A DNA stretch of 64,000 nt from Pollenia angustigena (lineage: Eukaryota > Arthropoda > Insecta > Diptera > Polleniidae). Below are positions 3,321-62,805 of this stretch, one piece after another; positions within the stretch are counted from its first letter, which is position 1, and every line of letters starts with the position of its first letter. Below the pieces are notes generated by a model. The model saw only the letters and a program-made list of their open reading frames with translations. It ran no database searches and was not told the DNA's origin. The stretch is from contig OV884056.1 of NCBI GenBank assembly GCA_930367215.1, positions 87,183,285 to 87,247,284 of the forward strand, read 5' to 3'. The position numbers and the translations under genes were made by a program.

Positions 3321-3662
3321 ATTTCATCTCAATTTTAGTTTTATTTATATATTTTTACACAAAAGTAATCAAAATAAAGAAAGTTGGAGAAATGTATATC
3401 GTTACCTACAATGTAAAAAGCCCTAACTAACAAAAAAATTTAAATGATTTTTTAAATTTTTAATTCATTAATTATTTTAAATCTATTTTTAATTTCATCA
3501 CAAACTTAGTTTTATTTATATAGTTATACACAAAAGTAATCAAAATAAAGAAAGCTAGAAAAATATACATATATCGCTCCCTACAATGTAAAAAGCCCTA
3601 ACTAACAAAAAATTTAAATGATTTTTTTAATTTTTATTTTATTATTTATTTTAAATCTAATT
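3321..3662. repeat. Tandem duplication, two units of about 170 bp
   Basis: Two diverged head-to-tail units (starting near 3321 and 3491) share TTAGTTTTATTTATATA, CACAAAAGTAATCAAAATAA and CTACAATGTAAAAAGCCC. They lie between the palindrome and the transposase C-terminus of Transib A, in its 3' non-coding part. Confidence 0.8.
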
Positions 3663-3671
3663 TTTAATTTA

Positions 3672-4034
3672 TCATTCTAAAAGAGCCTTAACTTCGTCGC
3701 TTATATCACTAGGCTTTTTCTGGCTAAACGAAGGAGTCAAGTGTGAGATCATGGGATCTGATGTTAGCATCATTCGTTGCATAATATCTTCGTTCGTGGC
3801 AATTCGACTGCATTTTCTGGAGTGTCTAAGGCGATATTTTTTATAGTCTTTGTTACGACTTTCCTGGGCCTCTTCGGATAATAAGCTTTCAGGAAAAATA
3901 AACTTTTCAATTATATATTTTCCATGAATCGGAATTTTGTGTAGTGTTGAGTTGTTTGTATGGTACGAGTATGTTATATCCTTAATTTTGTAACCCATGC
4001 AATAGATACTCGTATTTTTCTTTTGTAAGTTCAA
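3672..4034 (-). pseudogene. Transib/RAG1-like transposase, C-terminal fragment (copy A)
   Basis: A 120-residue minus-strand ORF. Its core, from IHGKYIIEKF through LLSEEAQESRNKDYKKYR to TSDPMIS, aligns with the C-terminal ORF of copy C (AHGKNLIEY, LSEEAQECKNKNYKHFR, SSDPLIS). In RAG1 and Transib this block carries the third catalytic acidic residue; the SEEAQE glutamates are its candidates here. The ORF ends naturally at a stop, leaving a 3' untranslated tail to the left terminus. Upstream it is joined, near 4034-4100, to the N-terminal block, so the DDE middle has been deleted. Not functional. Confidence 0.8.
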
Positions 4035-4099
4035 GCTTTGTAAACATCCCCAAAGTTTTTAATGTACAAGTTTTGTGGTTGGTTTTTGAAATACTAGAA

Positions 4100-4935
4100 G
4101 AAAATCAATTACTTCTTGAGGAAACATAGCACGTACTTCATCCCTTTTGTATCATTTGGCGCGATCACAGCACTCCTCAAACGATTTGCGTGGCCGACCA
4201 ATTGCAGAACTGGTAGAACATTCAGCCTCAGTAAACTTAATTGTAAATGTGCCTTCAAGCCAATTTGCATTCTTTTTTTCAAATCGCGACTTCGTACGGT
4301 TAGAATCTTGCCATCTTTGTTTGAAGTTATAGTAACAGCTTTTATATATTGTATCCAAAATTTCACATGCTCTAGTATCGTTTAAGCCAACGTGCAATTG
4401 TTGCAAAAACTGTTTTAATTTTGTTCTGTCTTTGTCAAACTCCAGAAGCTTCGAGCATAAAACCCCATGAGAAATAGAAAAACTTTCCCTTGCCGTAAAA
4501 CTCTTGGGCCTTAGTTTCAGTTATAATTAAAAAACCGGAGAAAAATTGGTTGTACTTTTCGCGTTCGTCAGCACTTGTTGAATGACAAAAATCGATCAAT
4601 ATTTTACTGACAGGTACGTTCCAAATATGAGCACTAATAGATGTGGGTGGAATTTCTGTAAAAAAAATCATACAGGTAGCCAACGGAAAACCCCAAATAA
4701 TTAAAAAAGTGCACTTTCCTTTTTTCCTTTCAATTGTCCACGCACATTTATTACCGCTTATTACTTTGCTACCGCAATCATAAAAATCAAATAACCTTTT
4801 GTTTATTACTTTTTTTTTTCTGAGAATCATAAAAAAAGTCATAAATGTTTTTGCAAAGAATTTTGTGCATATCTCGAGCAAATTTTTTAAATGCATACCT
4901 TCACTTAATTGTGAATTAAAGCCAAACGCGTTCAT
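4100..4935 (-). pseudogene. Transib/RAG1-like transposase, N-terminal fragment (copy A)
   Basis: Minus-strand coding remains. The segment 4406-4152 encodes RACEILDTIYKSCYYNF, KNANWLEGTFTIKF and SSAIGRPRKSFEECCDRAK. The GRPR motif followed by a basic helix resembles the nonamer-binding GRPR region of RAG1. A TGA at 4152-4154 interrupts the frame; similarity then continues as YKRDEVRAMFPQEVIDF before the deletion junction. Further upstream an open frame 4935-4435 precedes it, in a different frame (FDFYDCGSKV, KCAWTIERKKG). I do not recognise that part, and it may be leader or untranslated sequence. Copy B has the same upstream sequence but stops after TIYK because of its internal deletion. Confidence 0.7.
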
Positions 4936-30079: not shown

Positions 30080-31361
30080 AAGGGTGGTTAAATTGTAAGG
30101 GCCGATGTTGAATGTGAACCACACCTAAACGCCAAGTTTTTTTCCGAAATTTATTTGACATTTCTCTATTTCAGACTTACTCAATTTGAAGATACACAAT
30201 CCAACAACGTGTTAAAGTTATCCAGACTTATTATGAAAATGGGCGTTCAAATCAAAATGCATATCGTGCACTTCGTGATTTTTTTGGTCAATTTGATCGT
30301 CCAAATGTGCGTACAATCGCAAAAATCGTGGAAAAATTCGAGCAAACCGGGTCTGTAGAAGATGTGAGAACACCAGTGCATGCTCGTACAGCTCGTACTG
30401 CAGAAAATATTGCTGCTGTTCGCGATAGTGTGGCTGAAGAGCCGTCCACCTCAACTCGTCGTCGTGCCCAACAATTGCACCTCTCACGCTCGTCGTTGAT
30501 GAACATTATGCATAAAGACTTGCATTTACACGCTTACAAGGTGCAATTGGCTCAAGAACTAAAGCCTCTTGACTATTCCAAGCGTCGTGAATGGGCAGAA
30601 TGGTGGCAAGAAATGGCAACAGTGGATGATCAATCATCTTCAGTGATGAGGCAAATTTTCACCTCAGTGGATTCGTCAATAAACAGAATTGCCGCATTTT
30701 GGCGAATGATAATCCAAGAGTGATTGTCGAAAAACCAATGCACCCACAAAGAGTGACTGTTTGGTGCGGTTTATGGGCTGGCGGCATCATCCGGCCGTAT
30801 TTTTTCCAAAATGAGGCCGGTCAGGCAGTTACTGTGAATGGTGTTCGCTATCGTGAGATGATAACGAACTTTTTATGGCCCGAATTGGAAGATATGGATG
30901 TGGACGATATGTGGTTTCAGCAGGACGGTGCCACTTGCCACACAGCTAACGAAACAATGGCTCTTTTGCGCAACAAATTCAATGGCCGTGTTATCTCACG
31001 TAATGGCGATGTCAATTGGCCGCCAAGATCATGTGATTTGACACCGTTGGACTTCTTTCTTTGGGGTTATTTGAAAGAAAAGGTGTACGTCGATAAGCCA
31101 GCAACAATTCAAGAGCTAAAGGATGAGATAATTCGGCACATTAACGGCATAGAACCTCCATTATGCCTCAGGGTCATCGAAAATTTGGACCAACGGATGG
31201 AGGTGTGCCGCCGTGGTCGCGGCGCCCATTTGGCCGATATTTTGTTCCATACATAATTGAGTAATACCAATATATCATAATAAAATAAAATTACAATAAT
31301 TTCCTAAATAGTTTGTGTTTTATTCAAAATCAACATCGGTCCTTGAAATTTAACCACCCTT
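30080..31361 (+). mobile_element. Mariner transposon, full length (1282 bp)
   Basis: Termini AAGGGTGGTTAAATT at the left and AATTTAACCACCCTT at the right lie between TA dinucleotides (30078-30079 and 31362-31363), the universal Tc1/mariner target. Length is typical of mariner. The inverted repeats extend to about CCGATGTTGA on each side. The transposase is almost complete but damaged (see the CDS entry). A truncated sister copy is at 24640-25554. Confidence 0.9.
30150..31256 (+). pseudogene. Mariner transposase (D,D34D type), frameshifted
   Basis: DDE transposase performing cut-and-paste of the enclosing element. The N-terminal helix-turn-helix domain (QQRVKVIQTYYENGRS, then ALRDFFGQFDRPNVRTIAK) runs to the linker with HARTARTAENIAAV. 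The first Asp is in SDEANFHLSG, the second in WFQQDGATCHTA, and the third in CDLTPLDFFLWG, consistent with D,D34D. The C-terminus ends CRRGRGAHLADILFHT. Two lesions are visible. Near 30187 a 9-bp loss relative to the 25-kb copy leaves an in-frame TGA. Near 30633 a 13-bp loss shifts the frame between VDDQ and the SDEA block. Hence inactive, though the three catalytic residues remain. Confidence 0.9.
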
Positions 31362-33220: not shown

Positions 33221-33225
33221 CGGCG

Positions 33226-33868
33226 CACTGTGGCGCCTTTTCCCAAAAACCGTGGCAAAAATACAAAATTTGATGACAAAATTTTGTAAAATGAATGAAC
33301 GCATCGTATAAAGACCATTTTACTGATCAGAACTCAAAAACGTTTTTCTTAATTGGATAAGAATTATAGCTGGTGGAGCTGCTTAAAGTCGACAGTTTTT
33401 TAGAAACTCCAAAAAAGGTGATTTTGAGAAAAAAAAGACATTTTAGAATTGAAGTGTCAGAAATATTGCCTGCCGTGTGATCACCACTTTTTTGGTATTG
33501 TTTTAAAGGTATATTTATTGTTTATTAAAAAAAAGTAAGAAAATGTCCACCAGATACCCTACTTTTTTGGCAGTTGCCGTTTTTCAGACACCCTATATTT
33601 AGGTACTTTTTACAAATAAAATAGAGAATATCTAAAAATGGGCAAAAATGGTCACGCCCATATTTTGTTAGCATATTTACTACACAGTACTTTAAATAAT
33701 TTAGCTAAATTGGGTCACAAAAAATGACAGGTTTTCTTGAAATTTAAAGAAAGATGTTACAATCTTATAGACAGCGTTGCCACAGCCAAGATATTTTTGC
33801 AACCAAAATTAAAAAAAATTGACAAATAAGGAAAAAAGCTACCAAAATTTTAATATTTTTTATATTTT
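33226..33868. other. 5' non-coding part of Transib C
   Basis: AT-rich leader between the left terminus and the recognisable transposase. I find no GRPR-like N-terminal domain here, unlike copy A. It has either been lost or lies in an unrecognised, decayed exon. Confidence 0.5.
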
Positions 33869-35243
33869 ATGTTATCTGTTTTATGTTATCATAATGTGAA
33901 TGTTCTTCCTGGATATAAAAAGGTAACCTCTGCCAAAAAAGAAGCAGTACCATCTAATGTAAAAGTTACTGAAGTATCAGCAGAAGTTAAACTGCAAGAC
34001 TTAATGGATCATACATCTAAACGATTAGTTCATAGTTTTCCTGAAAAAGAAAGAGCATTACTTCCAGATAGGCTTACATTGATAAGCAAGTGGGGATGTG
34101 ATGGATCATCTGGTCAAAGTGCTTACAAACAAACAATATCGACAACTGACATAACTATTACAGATGCAAATATGTTTATGGCTTCTATAGTTCCTTTACG
34201 ACTTAGAGGTGAAATCTCTGAGCATTGGAAAAATCCTCGCCCATCGTCAGTCCATTTTTGCCGTCCGATATTTTTTAAATATGCAAAGGAGTCTTCAGAG
34301 ATAATCAAGTCTACAGTAAATGATATAAAAAAGCAAATTTCCGAAGTAAAGCCTTCTGTTATTATGAATTTTGTCTTACAATGATTGATGGCAAAGTCTT
34401 AAATGTAATAACAGATACTTCTTCAACTTTGAAGTGTGCAATTTGCAAAAAGTCACAGAAGGACTTTCAAAATTTTAATGATTCAAGTGATGTGCAAAAC
34501 TATGAATATGGAATTTCTCCGTTACATGCCAGAATTAGGTGCATGGAGTTTATTTTAAAATTAGCGTACACAATTCCGAGAGTAGGAGAACGTTTTCATG
34601 AGAATGCAACACCAAAAGAAAAACTAACTGCTCGAAAAAATATTATACAAAATGAATTTCTTAAGAACCTTGGACTAAAAATAGACTGCCCAAAGCAGGG
34701 ATATGGAAATACTAACGATGGTAACATGTCCAGATCGTTTTTTGAAAATGATGAGGTAACAGCCCAAATTACTGGTGTCGACAACCATATTATTAAAAGG
34801 TTGGCAGTTATTCTAAATGTTATAAACTCTAGAGAAATGGTAAATGGCCCAAAGTTTCAGGATTATGAATCAAAAACTGCCCTGCTTTTGGCTCAAAAGT
34901 ACCCTGAGAAGAAACTTACTCCTACATACTCCATAAGATTTTGGCTCATGGCAAAAATTTAATTGAATATCAATGCTTACCAATTGGAGAGTTATCAGAA
35001 GAAGCCCAGGAATGCAAAAACAAAAATTACAAGCACTTTAGATATGCGAATACTTGCAAAATTTCACGGATTAGACAGAATGATGATCTTTTTAATATGT
35101 TGGCGGCCTCTTCAGACCCACTGATTTCATCGCGGAGACATGTAAGATCTCGAAAGGATTTGGAAGAATATAATTATAGCTCCGATATGTTAAGTCTATT
35201 ACAAATCGCTAAAAATGTTAATGACTATTTTGAAGAAAACTAA
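33869..35243 (+). pseudogene. Transib/RAG1-like DDE transposase, three broken frames
   Basis: Recombinase of the RAG1/Transib family. Frame 1 (33869-34384) has NVNVLPGYKK, resembling the LLPGYH stretch of RAG1, then KWGCDGSSGQSAYKQ with the first catalytic Asp at about 34100, and HWKNPRPSSVHFCRPI, like the EPKPNS...CCKPL block after Asp600. Frame 2 (34381-34962) has a CAICKK Cys pair, YGISPLHARIRCMEF at the Asp708 position, and QGYGNTNDGNMSRSFF, like the MNGNFARKL block. Frame 3 (34941-35243) has AHGKNLIEY and IGELSEEAQECKNK, where RAG1 carries Glu962. Frameshifts lie near 34380 and 34941. In my alignment the second Asp position is not Asp. The start is unknown because the N-terminal domain is missing. 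Confidence 0.8.
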
Positions 35244-35439
35244 CTATTAAAAAAATTTATAAAAATAACTCAATATCATATTATAATATAGCATACTATA
35301 AAATAATATTATAAATTAACATAAGTATTAAAAATATTTCAATAATTTTTATCTGTAATATAAATAAAAAGAGTTATATTATTATAACATGTTATATTAG
35401 AGTAGCATTTTTTCTAGACTTCCCTATGAGAATGTCATT

Positions 35440-36193
35440 TAAAGCACAAAAAGTTGTGTTTTAAATGTTTGAGAAATTTTAAAAATATCATTACTTCAAC
35501 ATATATGATTTTTGCGACAAGAAAGGTTAAAGGTGTCATTGTGTCCAATGCCTATTACAATAAGGGAGCACTTATTTTGATCCTAAGAGATTTAAAAATC
35601 AAGTGTTTTCCCCCCATTACAAATTTCTTGGTAACTTTTAAAAATTATGATGTTTTCAACAAAAAAAAAAAAAAAAACACTGTGCACAGTGCCTCCACAA
35701 AGCTATGGCTAATAATGATGCTCATTTTTAAGTTATGATGTTTGTAAAAAAAACAGTCGAAAGCAGACACTGTGCACAGTGCCGCGCCTAACCTATGACC
35801 TTGCAAATCATATATATATATTAAAGAAAAAGGAGTTTTCTTTCAAATGCTAATTACAATTGTGCCGTTTATTTTGAAAGTGGCATAAGTCAATTCGGTT
35901 TTTAAGTCGAGATATTTAAGGGTTTGCGTTTTAACACGTTTAAAAATATGGATGCTAACTTTCGAGAAGATTCACTTGTATTTGATACATCATGATAATG
36001 ATATTTTTCTCAGTATTATTATTATTATTATTATTTATTATTATTATTTATTATTATTATTTATTATTAACTCGATTTTTTTTGAAAAAGTGACTAATGC
36101 CACTTTCAAAATAAACGGCTCAATTTTTAAATATCTTTATCAGTTCAAAAGTTATGATTTTTGCAACGAAAAAAGTCAAAAGGCTCCACTGTG
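35440..36193. repeat. Irregular tandem copies of the Transib C right end
   Basis: Variants of GTTATGATTTTTGCAACGAA followed by a CACTGTG heptamer recur near 35632-35691, 35726-35781 and 36150-36193. An earlier partial copy is near 35500. The two internal copies end in the 14-bp palindrome CACTGTGCACAGTG (35678-35691 and 35768-35781). An ATT microsatellite lies at 36015-36070. The region is non-coding. Confidence 0.7.
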
Positions 36194-36642
36194 CGGCGCC
36201 CACTATGACCTGTTCGCGCTTATTTGTACTTACTTGAATAATTCCAGGTTTCTCGCATTGGTACTAAGCGTCAGTTGGCTCGGCTCGGCAACAAGCGGCT
36301 ACTCTGTACGCATCCTTAGTTAGTCAATATGTCAAAAACACAAGCAACTTTTGTATTTCTCTCTCCCCTACAGATAATATTGGACTACGTGGTCCATTGT
36401 GGCTTAAATGGACTACTTACAACATGGTCCAATGTACTGCAGTATGGACCATGTTATAAGAAATTAAAATGCAGTGCTGCCAACAACTGCATAATGTATA
36501 CTTTTCTATAGTTTACAGTATTACACATTGGTAGCTCTGATGGTGTCCATTATTAATTGTTTATTTAAAAGTGAAAGTTTGTGAAATTTGTGGAAAAAAG
36601 ATAAAAAAAATTAAAAATACCAAGTAAATATATTTAATAATA

Positions 36643-50617: not shown

Positions 50618-51966
50618 ATGGCAAAAAAAAAAAAAAAATGAAAAATCGCCCAAATGAAGAATCGCCCAAAGGAAAATGAAAAATGACCCTAAAAGTTAAA
50701 TATGAAATTTTGCCCAAAAGAAATGAAAAAGAGCCCAAAATAAAAATGAAAAAGGACCCAAAAAGAAAAAACGAATTTTTTCCCAAAAAAAAAAAAAAAA
50801 AAAAAAAATTAAAAATTACCCAATTTGCAAAACAGTGTTTATTATTCGTATAAATTTAGTAACTTACAAATGTAAAACAAAACTATGTTTAAAGAAACTT
50901 ATTTTACCATAATGTGGTTGTCGATGACAATGATTTGGTTAAATTAAACATAATATGGTCAACATTTTTTTAAAAATGGTTTTGTGGTTTTTTCTCTGAG
51001 TGCATATATTAAACATATAACGAAAACACTTTTGGGCGCAAGGATTTTCTCCTCTTTGATAAAAACAAGTACCGGCTTCGCTAACTAAAGCGTCTCAGCA
51101 TAGCCGGCCTTTGGCCGGGCGCAAGGATTTTCTACTCTATGGTATAACAAAAACCGGCTTCGCTAACTAAAGCTTCTCTGCATAGCCGGCCTTCGGCTGT
51201 GCGCAAGGATTTTCTCCTCTGTGATATAACAAAGGCCGGCTTCGCTAACTAAAGCTTATCTGCGCAGACGGCCTTTGGGCAGGCCCAAGGATTTTTTCCT
51301 TTATGGTATAACAAGTACCGGTTTCGCTAATCTGCCTTGTTTCCGAACGAAGGCCGACTTCGCAGGTAAGCTTTAGTTATCGAAGCCAGTATTTGTTATA
51401 CCATAGAGGAGAAAATCCTTGCGCCTGGCCGAAGGCCCGCTGGGCAGAGAAGCTTTAGTTAGCGAAGCAGATTTTTGTTATACCATAGAGGGGAAAATCC
51501 TTGCCCCCGGCCGAAGGCCGGCTGTGCAGAGAAGCTTTAGTTAGCGAAGCCGGTACTTGTTTTTATCAAAGACGAGAAAATCCTTGCGCCCGGCCGTAGG
51601 CCGGCTATGCTTTCAAGTTTGTAAGCTATGCTTTCGAGTTTGTCCACGGACACTATGACACTGGACGTTATGACATGCAACCTTTTTGCAATATGTCCCG
51701 TTATTTTTATAAATAACATTTTGGAATTCGTCGTATAGTAATAATGAATGATTTAGACAAATAGTATGCCCGAAAAAATGGGCTATTTTTCATATAATAT
51801 TTTGGGTGATTTTTCATAATGGAAAATCACCAAATTTAAAAAAGGAAAATCACCCAATAGTAACGAAAAATAGCCCAACAATTTTGGGTCACTTTTCATA
51901 TGAATTCAGGCCCAATTTTACATGGAATTTTTTTGGGCGATTTTTCATTTATTTTTTTGGGCGATT
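50618..51966. mobile_element. Foldback-like palindrome built from tandem repeats
   Basis: The outer arms are simple tandem variants of AATCGCCCAAA with AAAAATGAA on the left (50605-50830), and of TTTTGGGCGATTTTTCAT on the right (51775-51966), inverted. The inner arms are 82-bp units, four forward and three inverted (see next entry). Inverted repeats made of tandem direct repeats are the hallmark of Drosophila Foldback (FB) elements; relatedness is inference. The inner part is much more GC-rich than the flanks. No target duplication identified. Confidence 0.65.
51034..51612. repeat. GC-rich 82-bp units in mirror array
   Basis: Forward units start GGCGCAAGGATTTTCTCCTC near 51035, 51117, 51199 and 51281. 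Each contains a TATAACAA tract, CCGGCTTCGCTAACTAAAGC and a GCCGGCCTTCGGC-like hairpin. After 51330 the units run inverted (GAAAATCCTTGCGC near 51411, 51493, 51574). The array can fold on itself, and each unit contains its own small GGCC hairpin. Confidence 0.85.
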
Positions 51967-60653: not shown

Positions 60654-62212
60654 TTTTTTTTTTTTTTTTTCATATTTTATTTATTGAATCTTTTCTTAAC
60701 TGAAATTGACAATAAGTTTTTCAAATCTTAAAATTCTAAATTATTTTATGAGGTAACGTGCCAATGCAAGTTGCCAATTAGATGTGAGAGGAGGTAATGC
60801 ATTGTTTATTATAGTGTTGCCAGATCTAGCGTGTCTTTTCTTTTTAGACGCCTATGTCCATCGCTAGAAAGTAAGTTTTGAGCTAAGGAATTTGGATGCA
60901 CTAACAGCTTATTAACATATTTAATACAGCTCTCCCGAGCTACTGTGATGACGGTAGAAATACTTAAGTCCTTGTGAAGGTTAGCATTCCTTACGTACCA
61001 GGGAGCTCCAGTAATTATTCTCAAAATCTTCGATTGTCTTCTTTGAAGTTTTTCAATATTTGTAGCGCATGCTGTTCCCCAGAGTTGGATTCCATAGGAC
61101 CAAATTGGTTTTATTATTGTGTTGTATATAAGGACTTTATATTCCAAATTAAGGGTGGATCTAGAGTTTAAGAGCCACATTAGTTGAACGGTCTTTAATT
61201 TGATTTGAGTTATTTTTGCTTCAATGTGTCTGCTCCACGTGAGTCGCCGATCTAGGTGTATTCCTAGGTATTTAACATGATTCTGTTGAGGAATTTGTAC
61301 GTTATTAATTTTAATTGGGGTGCAGTCATGTTTTCTGAGGGTAAATGTAATGTGGGTACATTTAACGGGATTGACATTAATTTTCCATTTGTCAAGCCAG
61401 ATTTGAAGTTCGTTAATGTGATTTTGCAATAGCTTTGATGCTTCTACTGGGCAAGAATGGGTACTTATAATGGCAGTATCATCGGCAAATGTAAATGTTT
61501 GGGTTTTTAAGTGAGTTGGCATATCTGCAGTATACAAGACATATAAGAAAGGACCAAGAATACTGCCTTGGGGTACACCAGCTTTTACAGAACAGGATCT
61601 GGATATAGTATCTTTTACTTTGATTGTAAATGACCGATTTGACAAGTAATTTTTAAGAAGTAAGTGTGTACTAGGTGGTAAAATGCAAGAGATTTTAGAT
61701 ATAAGCCCTTCGTGCCACACTTTGTCGAAGGCTTGAGCTATATCAATGAATAGAGCCGAACAATATTGCTTTGCTTCGAAAGTTTGTCTTATTAGTGTGA
61801 CAATTCGGTGCACTTGTTCTATTGTGTTGTGACTTTTGCGGAATCCAAACTGATGCTGAGGAATGATACGATGTTCGTTGGCATAAGGAATAATAAGGCT
61901 TAGAAGTAGTTTTTCATATAATTTTGATAATATTGACAGCAAGCTAATTGGTCTATATGATGTCGTTTGTGTTAAGTCTTTGCCAGGTTTCGGGATCATA
62001 ATTATTTGTGATTTTTTCCAGGTTGTGGGAAAGTGCCCTGTTCGATTTATGCCGTTGAATATGTATATAAGTACTTTTAACGCACATTCGGGCAGTTCTT
62101 GGATCATTTTGGCAGTAATTTTGTCATGGCCGGCAGATTTTTTGACTTTTAGCTCTTTAATGGTTAGTTTTAATTCTGGGAGTCTAAAATGAATTGGGTT
62201 AAGTGGATAATT
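60654..62212 (-). mobile_element. Jockey-like LINE insertion, 5' truncated, young
   Basis: Flanked by an exact 10-bp direct repeat GTACACATAT (60644-60653 and 62213-62222). Its 3' end (left) is a poly(A) of about 17, read here as T from 60654, preceded on its strand by ATTCAATAAATAAAAT with overlapping AATAAA signals. It is truncated at the 5' end inside ORF2, as is usual for target-primed reverse transcription. The reading frame is uninterrupted over its whole coding length, so the insertion looks recent. Confidence 0.9.
60809..62212 (-). CDS. Jockey-like LINE ORF2, reverse transcriptase to C-terminus (partial)
   Basis: Reverse transcriptase of a non-LTR retrotransposon; it would copy the element RNA at a nicked target. 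Visible RT blocks are AGHDKITAKMIQ, IMIPKPGKD...SYRPISLLS, HQFGFRKSHNT, ALFIDIAQAFDKVWH, AGVPQGSILGPFLY and the catalytic TFADDTAI, followed by KYLGIHLDRRLTWSRHI and GIQLWGTACATNIEKLQRRQ. The frame stays open to a stop at 60809. The first residues of the longest frame (upstream of NYPLNP) come from flanking DNA, so the ATG at 62233 is not a real start. The N-terminal endonuclease domain is missing, so it is not autonomous. The RT blocks themselves are intact. Confidence 0.9.
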   Translation of the reverse strand, partial: NYPLNPIHFRLPELKLTIKELKVKKSAGHDKITAKMIQELPECALKVLIYIFNGINRTGHFPTTWKKSQIIMIPKPGKDLTQTTSYRPISLLSILSKLYEKLLLSLIIPYANEHRIIPQHQFGFRKSHNTIEQVHRIVTLIRQTFEAKQYCSALFIDIAQAFDKVWHEGLISKISCILPPSTHLLLKNYLSNRSFTIKVKDTISRSCSVKAGVPQGSILGPFLYVLYTADMPTHLKTQTFTFADDTAIISTHSCPVEASKLLQNHINELQIWLDKWKINVNPVKCTHITFTLRKHDCTPIKINNVQIPQQNHVKYLGIHLDRRLTWSRHIEAKITQIKLKTVQLMWLLNSRSTLNLEYKVLIYNTIIKPIWSYGIQLWGTACATNIEKLQRRQSKILRIITGAPWYVRNANLHKDLSISTVITVARESCIKYVNKLLVHPNSLAQNLLSSDGHRRLKRKDTLDLATL

Positions 62213-62222
62213 GTACACATAT

Positions 62223-62805
62223 GTGCACCTCATTTTTCTACCATTTTAAGTAAAAAAAAATTAAAAAAAATAAAAATAGTTAATAAACCCTTTACTCAAT
62301 CGGTTCAGTTCAGATCTTAGAGGATATGCAACCAAATGTGCAAGTTGAACACCTTTTTTAAGTGTTTTGTTAATTTATTTTAACTGCCGTATTCATAAAA
62401 AATTAAAATGGATTTGAAATGTTTTTTAAGACAAATTTTTATGAAAATTTTTATGAAAATTTTGCCTATCTATCACTTACAATTACTTAACAATTTTTTG
62501 ATTTTAAAAAACTGAACCGCAACAGAAAAGAAAAACTAATCAATATCACAGGTTTTTTATTAACAAAAACAAATCAGGTGATTCGTAACAGAAAAGACTA
62601 ATTGAGCCTTTTCACTGCAGTTAAGGTACTTTTAGACGAGATGTATTTTGCAGTGGCTTTGCCAGATGTAAAAACCAAATGTAATTGCGCATTTATCCTT
62701 AATTTGAAAATACAGAAGTCTTATAATTTCTGTTTTCACACTTTTGTTTTGGTTTTCATCGGACATAACCTAAAAACATTTACAATTCACTTTTGATTTT
62801 ATTTC
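62223..62805. other. No gene seen
   Basis: AT-rich flank of the Jockey insertion; a 64-codon frame (62602-62796) has no recognised domain. Confidence 0.4.

What the first reader, a model, noticed from the sequence alone, without database searches (positions are those of the whole stretch)
33221..36198. A RAG1-like transposon whose ends read like recombination signals
Seen: exact CGGCG direct repeats flank a 2968-bp element. Its right end starts CACAGTG, identical to the RSS heptamer consensus, and its left end starts CACTGTG. Both ends have a GCAAAAAT block exactly 22 nt inside the heptamer; at the right end GCAAAAATC matches the RSS nonamer consensus (ACAAAAACC) at 7 of 9 positions. The left end also has CCAAAAACC (8 of 9) after a 10-nt gap. 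The encoded protein aligns by eye with RAG1 core blocks. Established: Transib transposases and RAG1 are homologous DDE recombinases with 5-bp duplications. Inference: this copy preserves an unusually RSS-like terminus.
Basis: partly seen in the sequence, partly recalled or inferred. Interest (0 to 1): 0.88.

Follow-up and report, generated by a model that had tools for sequence, protein, structure and literature searches.

The report
Transib transposon with internal signal joints
This is a decayed jumping gene of the Transib group, relatives of the enzyme that assembles antibody genes; its RSS-like ends are an expected feature of that group, but it and a young relative in the same genome carry end-to-end junctions like the signal joints made in antibody-gene assembly.

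Summary
Window 33226-36193 is a cut-and-paste element with 5-bp CGGCG duplications, CACTGTG/CACAGTG tips and GCAAAAAT 22 nt inside each. Its broken transposase matches the solved transposase 6pqn (best piece 1e-32) and RAG1 only marginally. Copies in its own 1.37-Gb genome end at the same bases, with TSDs mostly CGNCG. So it is a Transib, and RSS-like Transib ends are published. The nonamer match is marginal: P=0.013 right, 0.19 left.

The stronger result was not in the finding. The 3' region holds two perfect heptamer-to-heptamer palindromes, CACTGTG|CACAGTG, each preceded by a copy of the right end. The 14-mer occurs 256 times in the genome against about 1 expected. A related, very young Transib (1142 exact right ends) shows such junctions fresh: three head-to-tail dimers with no base between the heptamers. 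The two read in full have near-identical units and a TSD only outside. I read these as natural signal joints, and the window's palindromes as old ones; the latter is inference.

The parts
33221..33225 (.). left target-site duplication CGGCG
   Evidence: TSDs of other copies
33226..33232 (+). left (5') terminal heptamer CACTGTG
33226..33265 (+). 5' terminal repeat, with GCAAAAAT at 33255-33262 (spacer 22) and CCAAAAACC at 33243-33251 (spacer 10)
33854..34384 (+). transposase piece A (176 aa), holds CDGSSG with the first catalytic Asp by recalled Transib/RAG1 alignment
   Evidence: 6pqn E=5.3e-25; motif at 34097
34324..34962 (+). transposase piece B (212 aa), other frame, holds MIDGK with the second catalytic Asp (recalled)
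   Evidence: 6pqn E=1e-32; motif at 34381
34908..35243 (+). transposase piece C (111 aa), third frame, holds ELSEEAQE with the catalytic Glu (recalled)
   Evidence: 6pqn E=8.7e-16, Pfam RAG1 E=0.0081; motif at 34989
35477..35543 (+). R0: right-end repeat ending in a degenerate heptamer CATTGTG (35537-35543)
   Evidence: D4; R0 vs R3 consensus alignment 0 of 500 shuffles
35642..35684 (+). R1: right-end repeat ending CACTGTG
   Evidence: D2
35678..35691 (.). internal joint 1: CACTGTG|CACAGTG
   Evidence: present in other copies
35730..35774 (+). R2: right-end repeat ending CACTGTG
   Evidence: D2; R2 (longer form from L041) vs R3 0 of 500 shuffles
35768..35781 (.). internal joint 2: CACTGTG|CACAGTG
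35775..35820 (-). U3: end-like sequence facing R2, heptamer CACAGTG, GCAAATCAT 21 nt inside it
   Evidence: aligns with inverted R0, 0 of 2000 shuffles
35862..36121 (.). ~260-bp insertion absent from the listed copies, bounded by 38-bp inverted arms (35858-35895 / 36088-36125)
36149..36193 (+). R3: true right (3') end; GATTTTTGC at 36156-36164, heptamer CACTGTG 36187-36193 (reverse complement CACAGTG)
36194..36198 (.). right target-site duplication CGGCG

Best explanation
The element is a decayed, internally deleted copy of a Transib family that moved by cut-and-paste and inserted at CGNCG with a 5-bp duplication (shown by copies and TSDs). Transib transposases, like RAG, are known to cut at the heptamer and leave blunt signal ends (recalled). 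I infer that in this genome such ends are sometimes ligated directly to one another, heptamer to heptamer with no base lost, instead of being integrated: a V(D)J-type signal joint. In the young family B this has left head-to-tail dimers with the TSD only on the outside. The dimer could come from a joint between the right end on one sister chromatid and the left end on the other, from recombination of a signal-joint circle with a resident copy, or from transposition of a ready-made dimer; I cannot choose between these. The window family's internal CACTGTG|CACAGTG palindromes are then fixed remnants of older joints between ends, carried as passengers since.
For: Transposase. Termini and TSDs. 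The 14-mer joint: 256 in 1.37 Gb, 0 for the reversed control, about 1.2 expected; the 23 loci around such sites that I held (L041-L063, 15 distinct 3' regions, the window's among them) all match this family's 3' region. R0-R3 are copies of the right end (each of the six pairs 0 of 500 mononucleotide shuffles), and the stretch facing R2 is end-like (0 of 2000 against inverted R0; 36 pairs were tested). Family B: dimer 1 at C3:102629908-102632743, 2 x 1418 bp, one difference, CGACG on both outer sides, TACTGTG|CACAGTG at the joint. Dimer 2 at C3:217774198, 1744 + 1745 bp, no mismatch and one gap, CGACG outside. Dimer 3 at C2:77262727, same joint, form that carries transposase coding, period 3201 bp. 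A monomer with TSD CAGCG/CAGCG shows the same tips are true ends. The three dimers are of three different unit types, so a single copied founder event is unlikely (inference).
Against: No joint between the window family's own two ends was found: 17 places, all with exactly 2 mismatches. Of these 17, three are the family B joints; I read 5 newly fetched loci plus one known copy (L012), and 11 were not inspected beyond the matched letters. Two neighbouring window-family copies in L063 proved to be separate insertions, the second with TSD tgtcg on both sides, not a dimer. The internal joints are no better conserved than other 14-mers (77% of copies, median 75%), so nothing shows that they work as sites today. 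U1 and U2, the stretches facing R0 and R1, are not significantly end-like, and U3 resembles 3' ends, not 5' ends. In L060 an extra partial palindrome lies beside joint 1, and L056 and L061 show disrupted forms of that stretch, which looks like local duplication. Dimers are rare: 3 found against 1142 exact right ends, though the pattern was not made for family B, so 3 is a lower bound. Outer ends of dimer 3 were not read. The gap-size test for family B did not complete.
Confidence: 0.62

Rival explanations
1. The internal palindromes of the window family are subterminal repeats that arose by local duplication of the right end and heptamer, perhaps as extra transposase-binding sites; they never were joined ends. 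The family B dimers would be a separate matter.
For: Four right-end repeats in direct order; extra partial palindrome in L060 and disrupted forms in L056 and L061; spacing between the joints varies (about 90 or 114 bp in most listed pairs); U1 and U2 not end-like.
Against: Simple duplication of the right end does not create the inverted half CACAGTG nor the end-like U3 that faces R2; joints are not conserved above background as binding sites would be; family B shows that exact heptamer joints do form.
Confidence: 0.28
2. Nested insertion: one Transib inserted exactly at the heptamer of another, using CTGTG as its 5-bp target.
For: Transib does make 5-bp duplications; insertion beside another copy is possible.
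Against: After the second unit of dimers 1 and 2 the outer sequence is CGACG, matching the far-left flank, not CTGTG; after R2 comes CACAGTGCC, not CTGTG; CTGTG does not fit CGNCG.
Confidence: 0.04
3. Ordinary Transib; its internal palindromes are chance and the dimers are assembly errors.
For: One ancestral accident copied by transposition could give all 256 sites; I have no reads with which to check the assembly.
Against: Two perfect 14-mers in one family's 3' end plus three dimers in another, each cut exactly at the element tips, with different unit types and, for the two read outside, distinct flanks; about 1.2 such 14-mers are expected in the whole genome.
Confidence: 0.06

Closest known systems
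Transib superfamily (solved representative 6pqn; that it is Helicoverpa zea HzTransib is recalled)
   Same: Transposase homologous over 450 residues; 5-bp TSD; RSS-like tips; GC-rich target. Hztransib was described as 3518 bp with 5-bp TSD GCTCG and a deduced 489-aa protein (PMC1852546, passages).
   Different: Internal heptamer-to-heptamer palindromes and zero-gap head-to-tail dimers, which I did not see described for Transib in the papers and listings looked at.
V(D)J recombination signal joints (RAG1/RAG2)
   Same: Head-to-head ligation of blunt heptamer ends (described in PMC8355894, passages).
   Different: No antigen-receptor locus here; joints are inherited in a transposon; the enzyme is a Transib transposase; chemistry not shown here.
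Episomal hAT elements (hobo, Hermes)
   Same: Excised elements whose two ends are joined, compared with signal joints by their authors (PMC2803484, abstract and passages).
   Different: 86% of those episomes with two intact ends carry 1-1000 bp between the ends (same paper); the joints here have none and sit in the chromosome as dimers.
ProtoRAG / RAGL transposons
   Same: RAG1-type transposase, CAC-starting tips, 5-bp TSD (PMC7204232 and PMC9435367, passages).
   Different: The protein matches RAG1L only at E=0.0036 against 8.5e-86 for the Transib-type 6pqn. A RAG2-like gene was not searched for.

Membership tests
Transib superfamily | DDE transposase homologous to known Transib transposases | tested here: met
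   6pqn: 5.3e-25, 1e-32, 8.7e-16 for the pieces; 8.5e-86 for a 481-aa copy; that 6pqn is a Transib is recalled
Transib superfamily | 5-bp target-site duplication, GC-rich | tested here: met
   24 of 40 loci with both ends; 19 of 24 identical, the other 5 one base off; 13 of 19 CGNCG
Transib superfamily | tips starting CAC with an A-rich block inside | tested here: met
Transib superfamily | catalytic D-D-E retained | tested here: inconclusive
   CDGSSG, MIDGK and ELSEEAQE motifs present in three frames; which residues are catalytic is recalled, and the gene is broken
RSS (12/23 recombination signal) | heptamer CACAGTG | tested here: met
   right tip exact, left tip CACTGTG
RSS (12/23 recombination signal) | nonamer ACAAAAACC at spacer 12 or 23 | tested here: inconclusive
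   right 7/9 at 22 nt, P=0.013; left 6/9, P=0.19; 12-spacer no excess
RSS (12/23 recombination signal) | 12/23 asymmetry of the two ends | tested here: not met
   both ends have the shared block at 22 nt
RAG1/RAGL proper | closer to RAG1/RAG1L than to Transib | tested here: not met
RAG1/RAGL proper | a RAG2-like gene in the element | not tested
   no search was made for one
Signal joint | two heptamers fused head to head with no base between | tested here: met
   window joints 35678-35691, 35768-35781; family B joints, where the left heptamer reads TACTGTG
Signal joint | both partners are genuine element ends (family B) | tested here: met
   monomer with TSD; dimers 1 and 2 with outer TSDs
Signal joint | both partners are genuine element ends (window family) | tested here: inconclusive
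   R-type sides and U3 are end-like, U1 and U2 not; never seen as free tips, as that search did not complete
Signal joint | made by transposase cutting and end joining | not testable with these tools
   needs biochemistry

The most novel reading that the evidence does not exclude
A Transib transposase in an animal-type genome makes true signal joints in the germ line: it cuts at two heptamers and the blunt ends are ligated precisely, leaving heritable element dimers and, in time, new composite ends. The end-joining half of V(D)J chemistry would then be visible as fossils and fresh products in a wild transposon, without an immune system.
Probability: 0.5. Interest if true: 0.72.

Novelty: new variant of a known kind. 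Interest (0 to 1): 0.55.

Why it matters
RSS-like Transib tips are old news, but a young Transib with over a thousand identical right ends, some copies with transposase coding, and chromosomal dimers joined heptamer to heptamer makes a long-standing question testable: whether precise signal-end joining is a property the RAG system took over from its transposon ancestor or something added later. The window family suggests that such joints can become fixed parts of a transposon end.

Tried and rejected
Considered and dropped: the similarity between the window's outer right flank (CCCACTATGACCTG) and the stretch after joint 2; other copies have unrelated flanks there, so it is chance. First thought that 114-bp-spaced joints were another family; the one read in full (L041) is a longer form of unit 2 in the same family. 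First took U3 for a 5'-type end; alignment favours an inverted 3'-type end. Joints between the window family's own ends: none exact. Two neighbouring copies in L063 as a possible dimer: separate insertions. Selection on the joints: not seen. Pfam on the 481-aa copy gave only BTG at 0.029, no use. No structure prediction was run.

Unanswered: whether R2 is ever used as a true end (GTCGAAAGCAGACACTGTGCGNCG), whether U3 is ever a free tip (CGNCGCACAGTGCCGCGCCTAACC, tried only), and the gap distribution in family B (CGGGCGCTACTGTGN{0,30}CACAGTGGCGCC): the server was busy each time. A DNA query with window 35600-35860 also did not complete and was given up.
Full report
What is in the window. Three overlapping frames, 33854-34384, 34324-34962 and 34908-35243, each have their best match in the Protein Data Bank in the transposase of entry 6pqn, at 5.3e-25, 1e-32 and 8.7e-16. 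A 481-aa open copy elsewhere in the genome (L013) matches it at 8.5e-86 over residues 21-470, against 0.0036 for the RAG1-like protein of 6b40. Pfam RAG1 scores 14.8 bits on the last piece, below its cut-off of 25, and is not listed for the 481-aa copy. So the protein is a Transib transposase; the entry gives only 'DNA-mediated transposase', and that it is HzTransib is recalled.

The family. The window lies in a 1.37-Gb genome with 31 contigs that is held without a name. The search with the element gave 101 matching stretches; only 40 of 2555 first-look candidates were scored, so this is a lower bound. I held 40 loci, the window copy among them. Where the ends survive they stop at the same bases; several copies have lost or mutated one end. 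Both ends were caught by pattern in 24 of 40; 19 of 24 have identical 5-bp duplications, the other 5 differ by one base, and 13 of the 19 are CGNCG. Copies differ by 4.5% on average in the 3' region (524 pairs with more than 300 shared columns, of 34 copies; range 1.0-23.6%). The window copy is a poor example: it carries about 260 bp that the listed others lack, appears to lack N-terminal coding that others keep and is broken into three frames.

Are the ends unusually RSS-like? The heptamer is exact at one tip. At the position where a 23-RSS has its nonamer, the right end matches 7 of 9 (P=0.013 against dinucleotide shuffles) and the left 6 of 9 (P=0.19); the 8-of-9 CCAAAAACC at the left is not rare in such AT-rich sequence (P=0.19). 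The two ends do share an 8-nt block at the same offset (P=0.007). There is no 12/23 asymmetry (all). The literature already describes RSS-like Transib TIRs, including some with 12/23 asymmetry and heptamers or nonamers identical to RSSs (PMC8355894, passages read). The original Transib paper is not held. This part is therefore ordinary.

Inside the 3' region there are two perfect CACTGTG|CACAGTG palindromes, at 35678-35691 and 35768-35781. Each follows a copy of the element's right end; with a more decayed one (R0) there are four right-end repeats, R0 to R3, and in each of the six pairs none of 500 shuffles reached the score (consensus pieces, R2 in its longer form from L041). The 14-mer occurs 256 times in the genome; its reversed control occurs 0 times, and about 1.2 are expected. 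All 23 loci held around such sites, which cover 15 distinct 3' regions, match this family; most of the 256 were not looked at. The stretch facing R2 is itself end-like: none of 2000 shuffles reached its score against inverted R0 (36 pairs tested). The stretches facing R0 and R1 are not significantly so. The palindromes are as conserved as their surroundings, no more (77% of copies against a median of 75%). In L060 joint 1 has an extra partial palindrome beside it, and L056 and L061 have disrupted forms there.

A second family shows how such junctions may arise. A search for junctions between the window family's own ends, allowing two mismatches, gave 17 places, all with two mismatches. Three of them were something else: TACTGTG|CACAGTGGCGCC, made of two ends of a related Transib, family B. 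Its transposase pieces are 61% and 65% identical to the window family's over 274 and 196 residues. It is very young: 40 of 40 scored copies, of 1102 first-look candidates, are given as 100% identical over 570 bp, and its right end occurs 1142 times exactly. A monomer at C4:26327712 has CAGCG on both sides. Dimer 1, C3:102629908-102632743, is two 1418-bp units, one base different, with CGACG on both outer sides and nothing between the two heptamers. Dimer 2, at C3:217774198, has units of 1744 and 1745 bp with no mismatch and one gap, again CGACG outside and nothing between. Dimer 3, at C2:77262727, joins two copies of a form with transposase coding, which is broken into several frames in what I read; the second period, 3201 bp away, is identical over the 200 bases that I held. 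The pattern was not made for family B, so three is a lower bound; left-left joints of family B would have fallen within it and none was seen, while right-right joints would not have.

Interpretation. A zero-gap junction of two intact heptamers is not what insertion gives, since that leaves five bases, nor unequal crossing-over between separate copies, which would keep the sequence between them. It is what joining of two blunt signal ends gives. The dimers could form between sister chromatids, by recombination of a signal-joint circle with a resident copy, or as ready-made dimers that then transpose; the outer duplications fit all three. That the transposase did the cutting is inferred from the known chemistry of Transib and RAG (recalled), not shown here. 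For the window family the same reading is weaker: the joints are old, shared by descent, and local duplication cannot be excluded.

Comparison. Joined ends are known from V(D)J signal joints (PMC8355894, passages) and from episomal hobo and Hermes elements, where 86% of those with two intact ends have 1-1000 bp between the ends (PMC2803484, abstract and passages). In the searches that I made (listings, plus passages of PMC8355894, PMC9435367, PMC1852546, PMC2803484 and PMC7204232) I saw no description of Transib dimers or internal heptamer joints; subscription journals are mostly missing from that library, so this is no claim of priority.

Verdict. The finding itself is a real but ordinary Transib copy. 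The junctions are a new variant of a known kind, well supported in family B and plausible in the window family.

Noticed in passing
window 3744-4520, minus strand: Remains of a second, different Transib transposase: C-terminal piece 45-56% identical to the two families here, N-terminal piece 35% identical to family B; a 171-bp tandem repeat lies beyond its end at 3321-3674.
   Followed up: partly
window 51034-51606: Two adjoining arrays of what looks like the same 82-bp unit in opposite orientation. The copy at L014 sits in sequence that looks like the same unit, with TSD GGCCG (by eye).
   Followed up: no
window 35858-36125: About 260-bp insertion with 38-bp inverted arms and an ATT-rich core, only in the window copy among those listed; looks like a foldback or MITE-type insertion.
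   Followed up: no
window 30190-31256, plus strand: Two overlapping frames that look like a broken mariner/Tc1-type transposase (by eye, recalled).
   Followed up: no
window 60809-62245, minus strand: 478-aa open frame that looks like a non-LTR retrotransposon reverse transcriptase (by eye, recalled).
   Followed up: no
L057 (G000:C1:124996200-124997500): A tandem duplication with a 351-bp spacing that includes joint 2, the true right end and its flank CGGCTGTTTCC: local duplication of a Transib end together with flanking DNA.
   Followed up: no
L063 (G000:C1:64332400-64336300): Two window-family 3' regions in the same orientation about 2.7 kb apart; they are separate insertions, the second with tgtcg on both sides.
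   Followed up: yes
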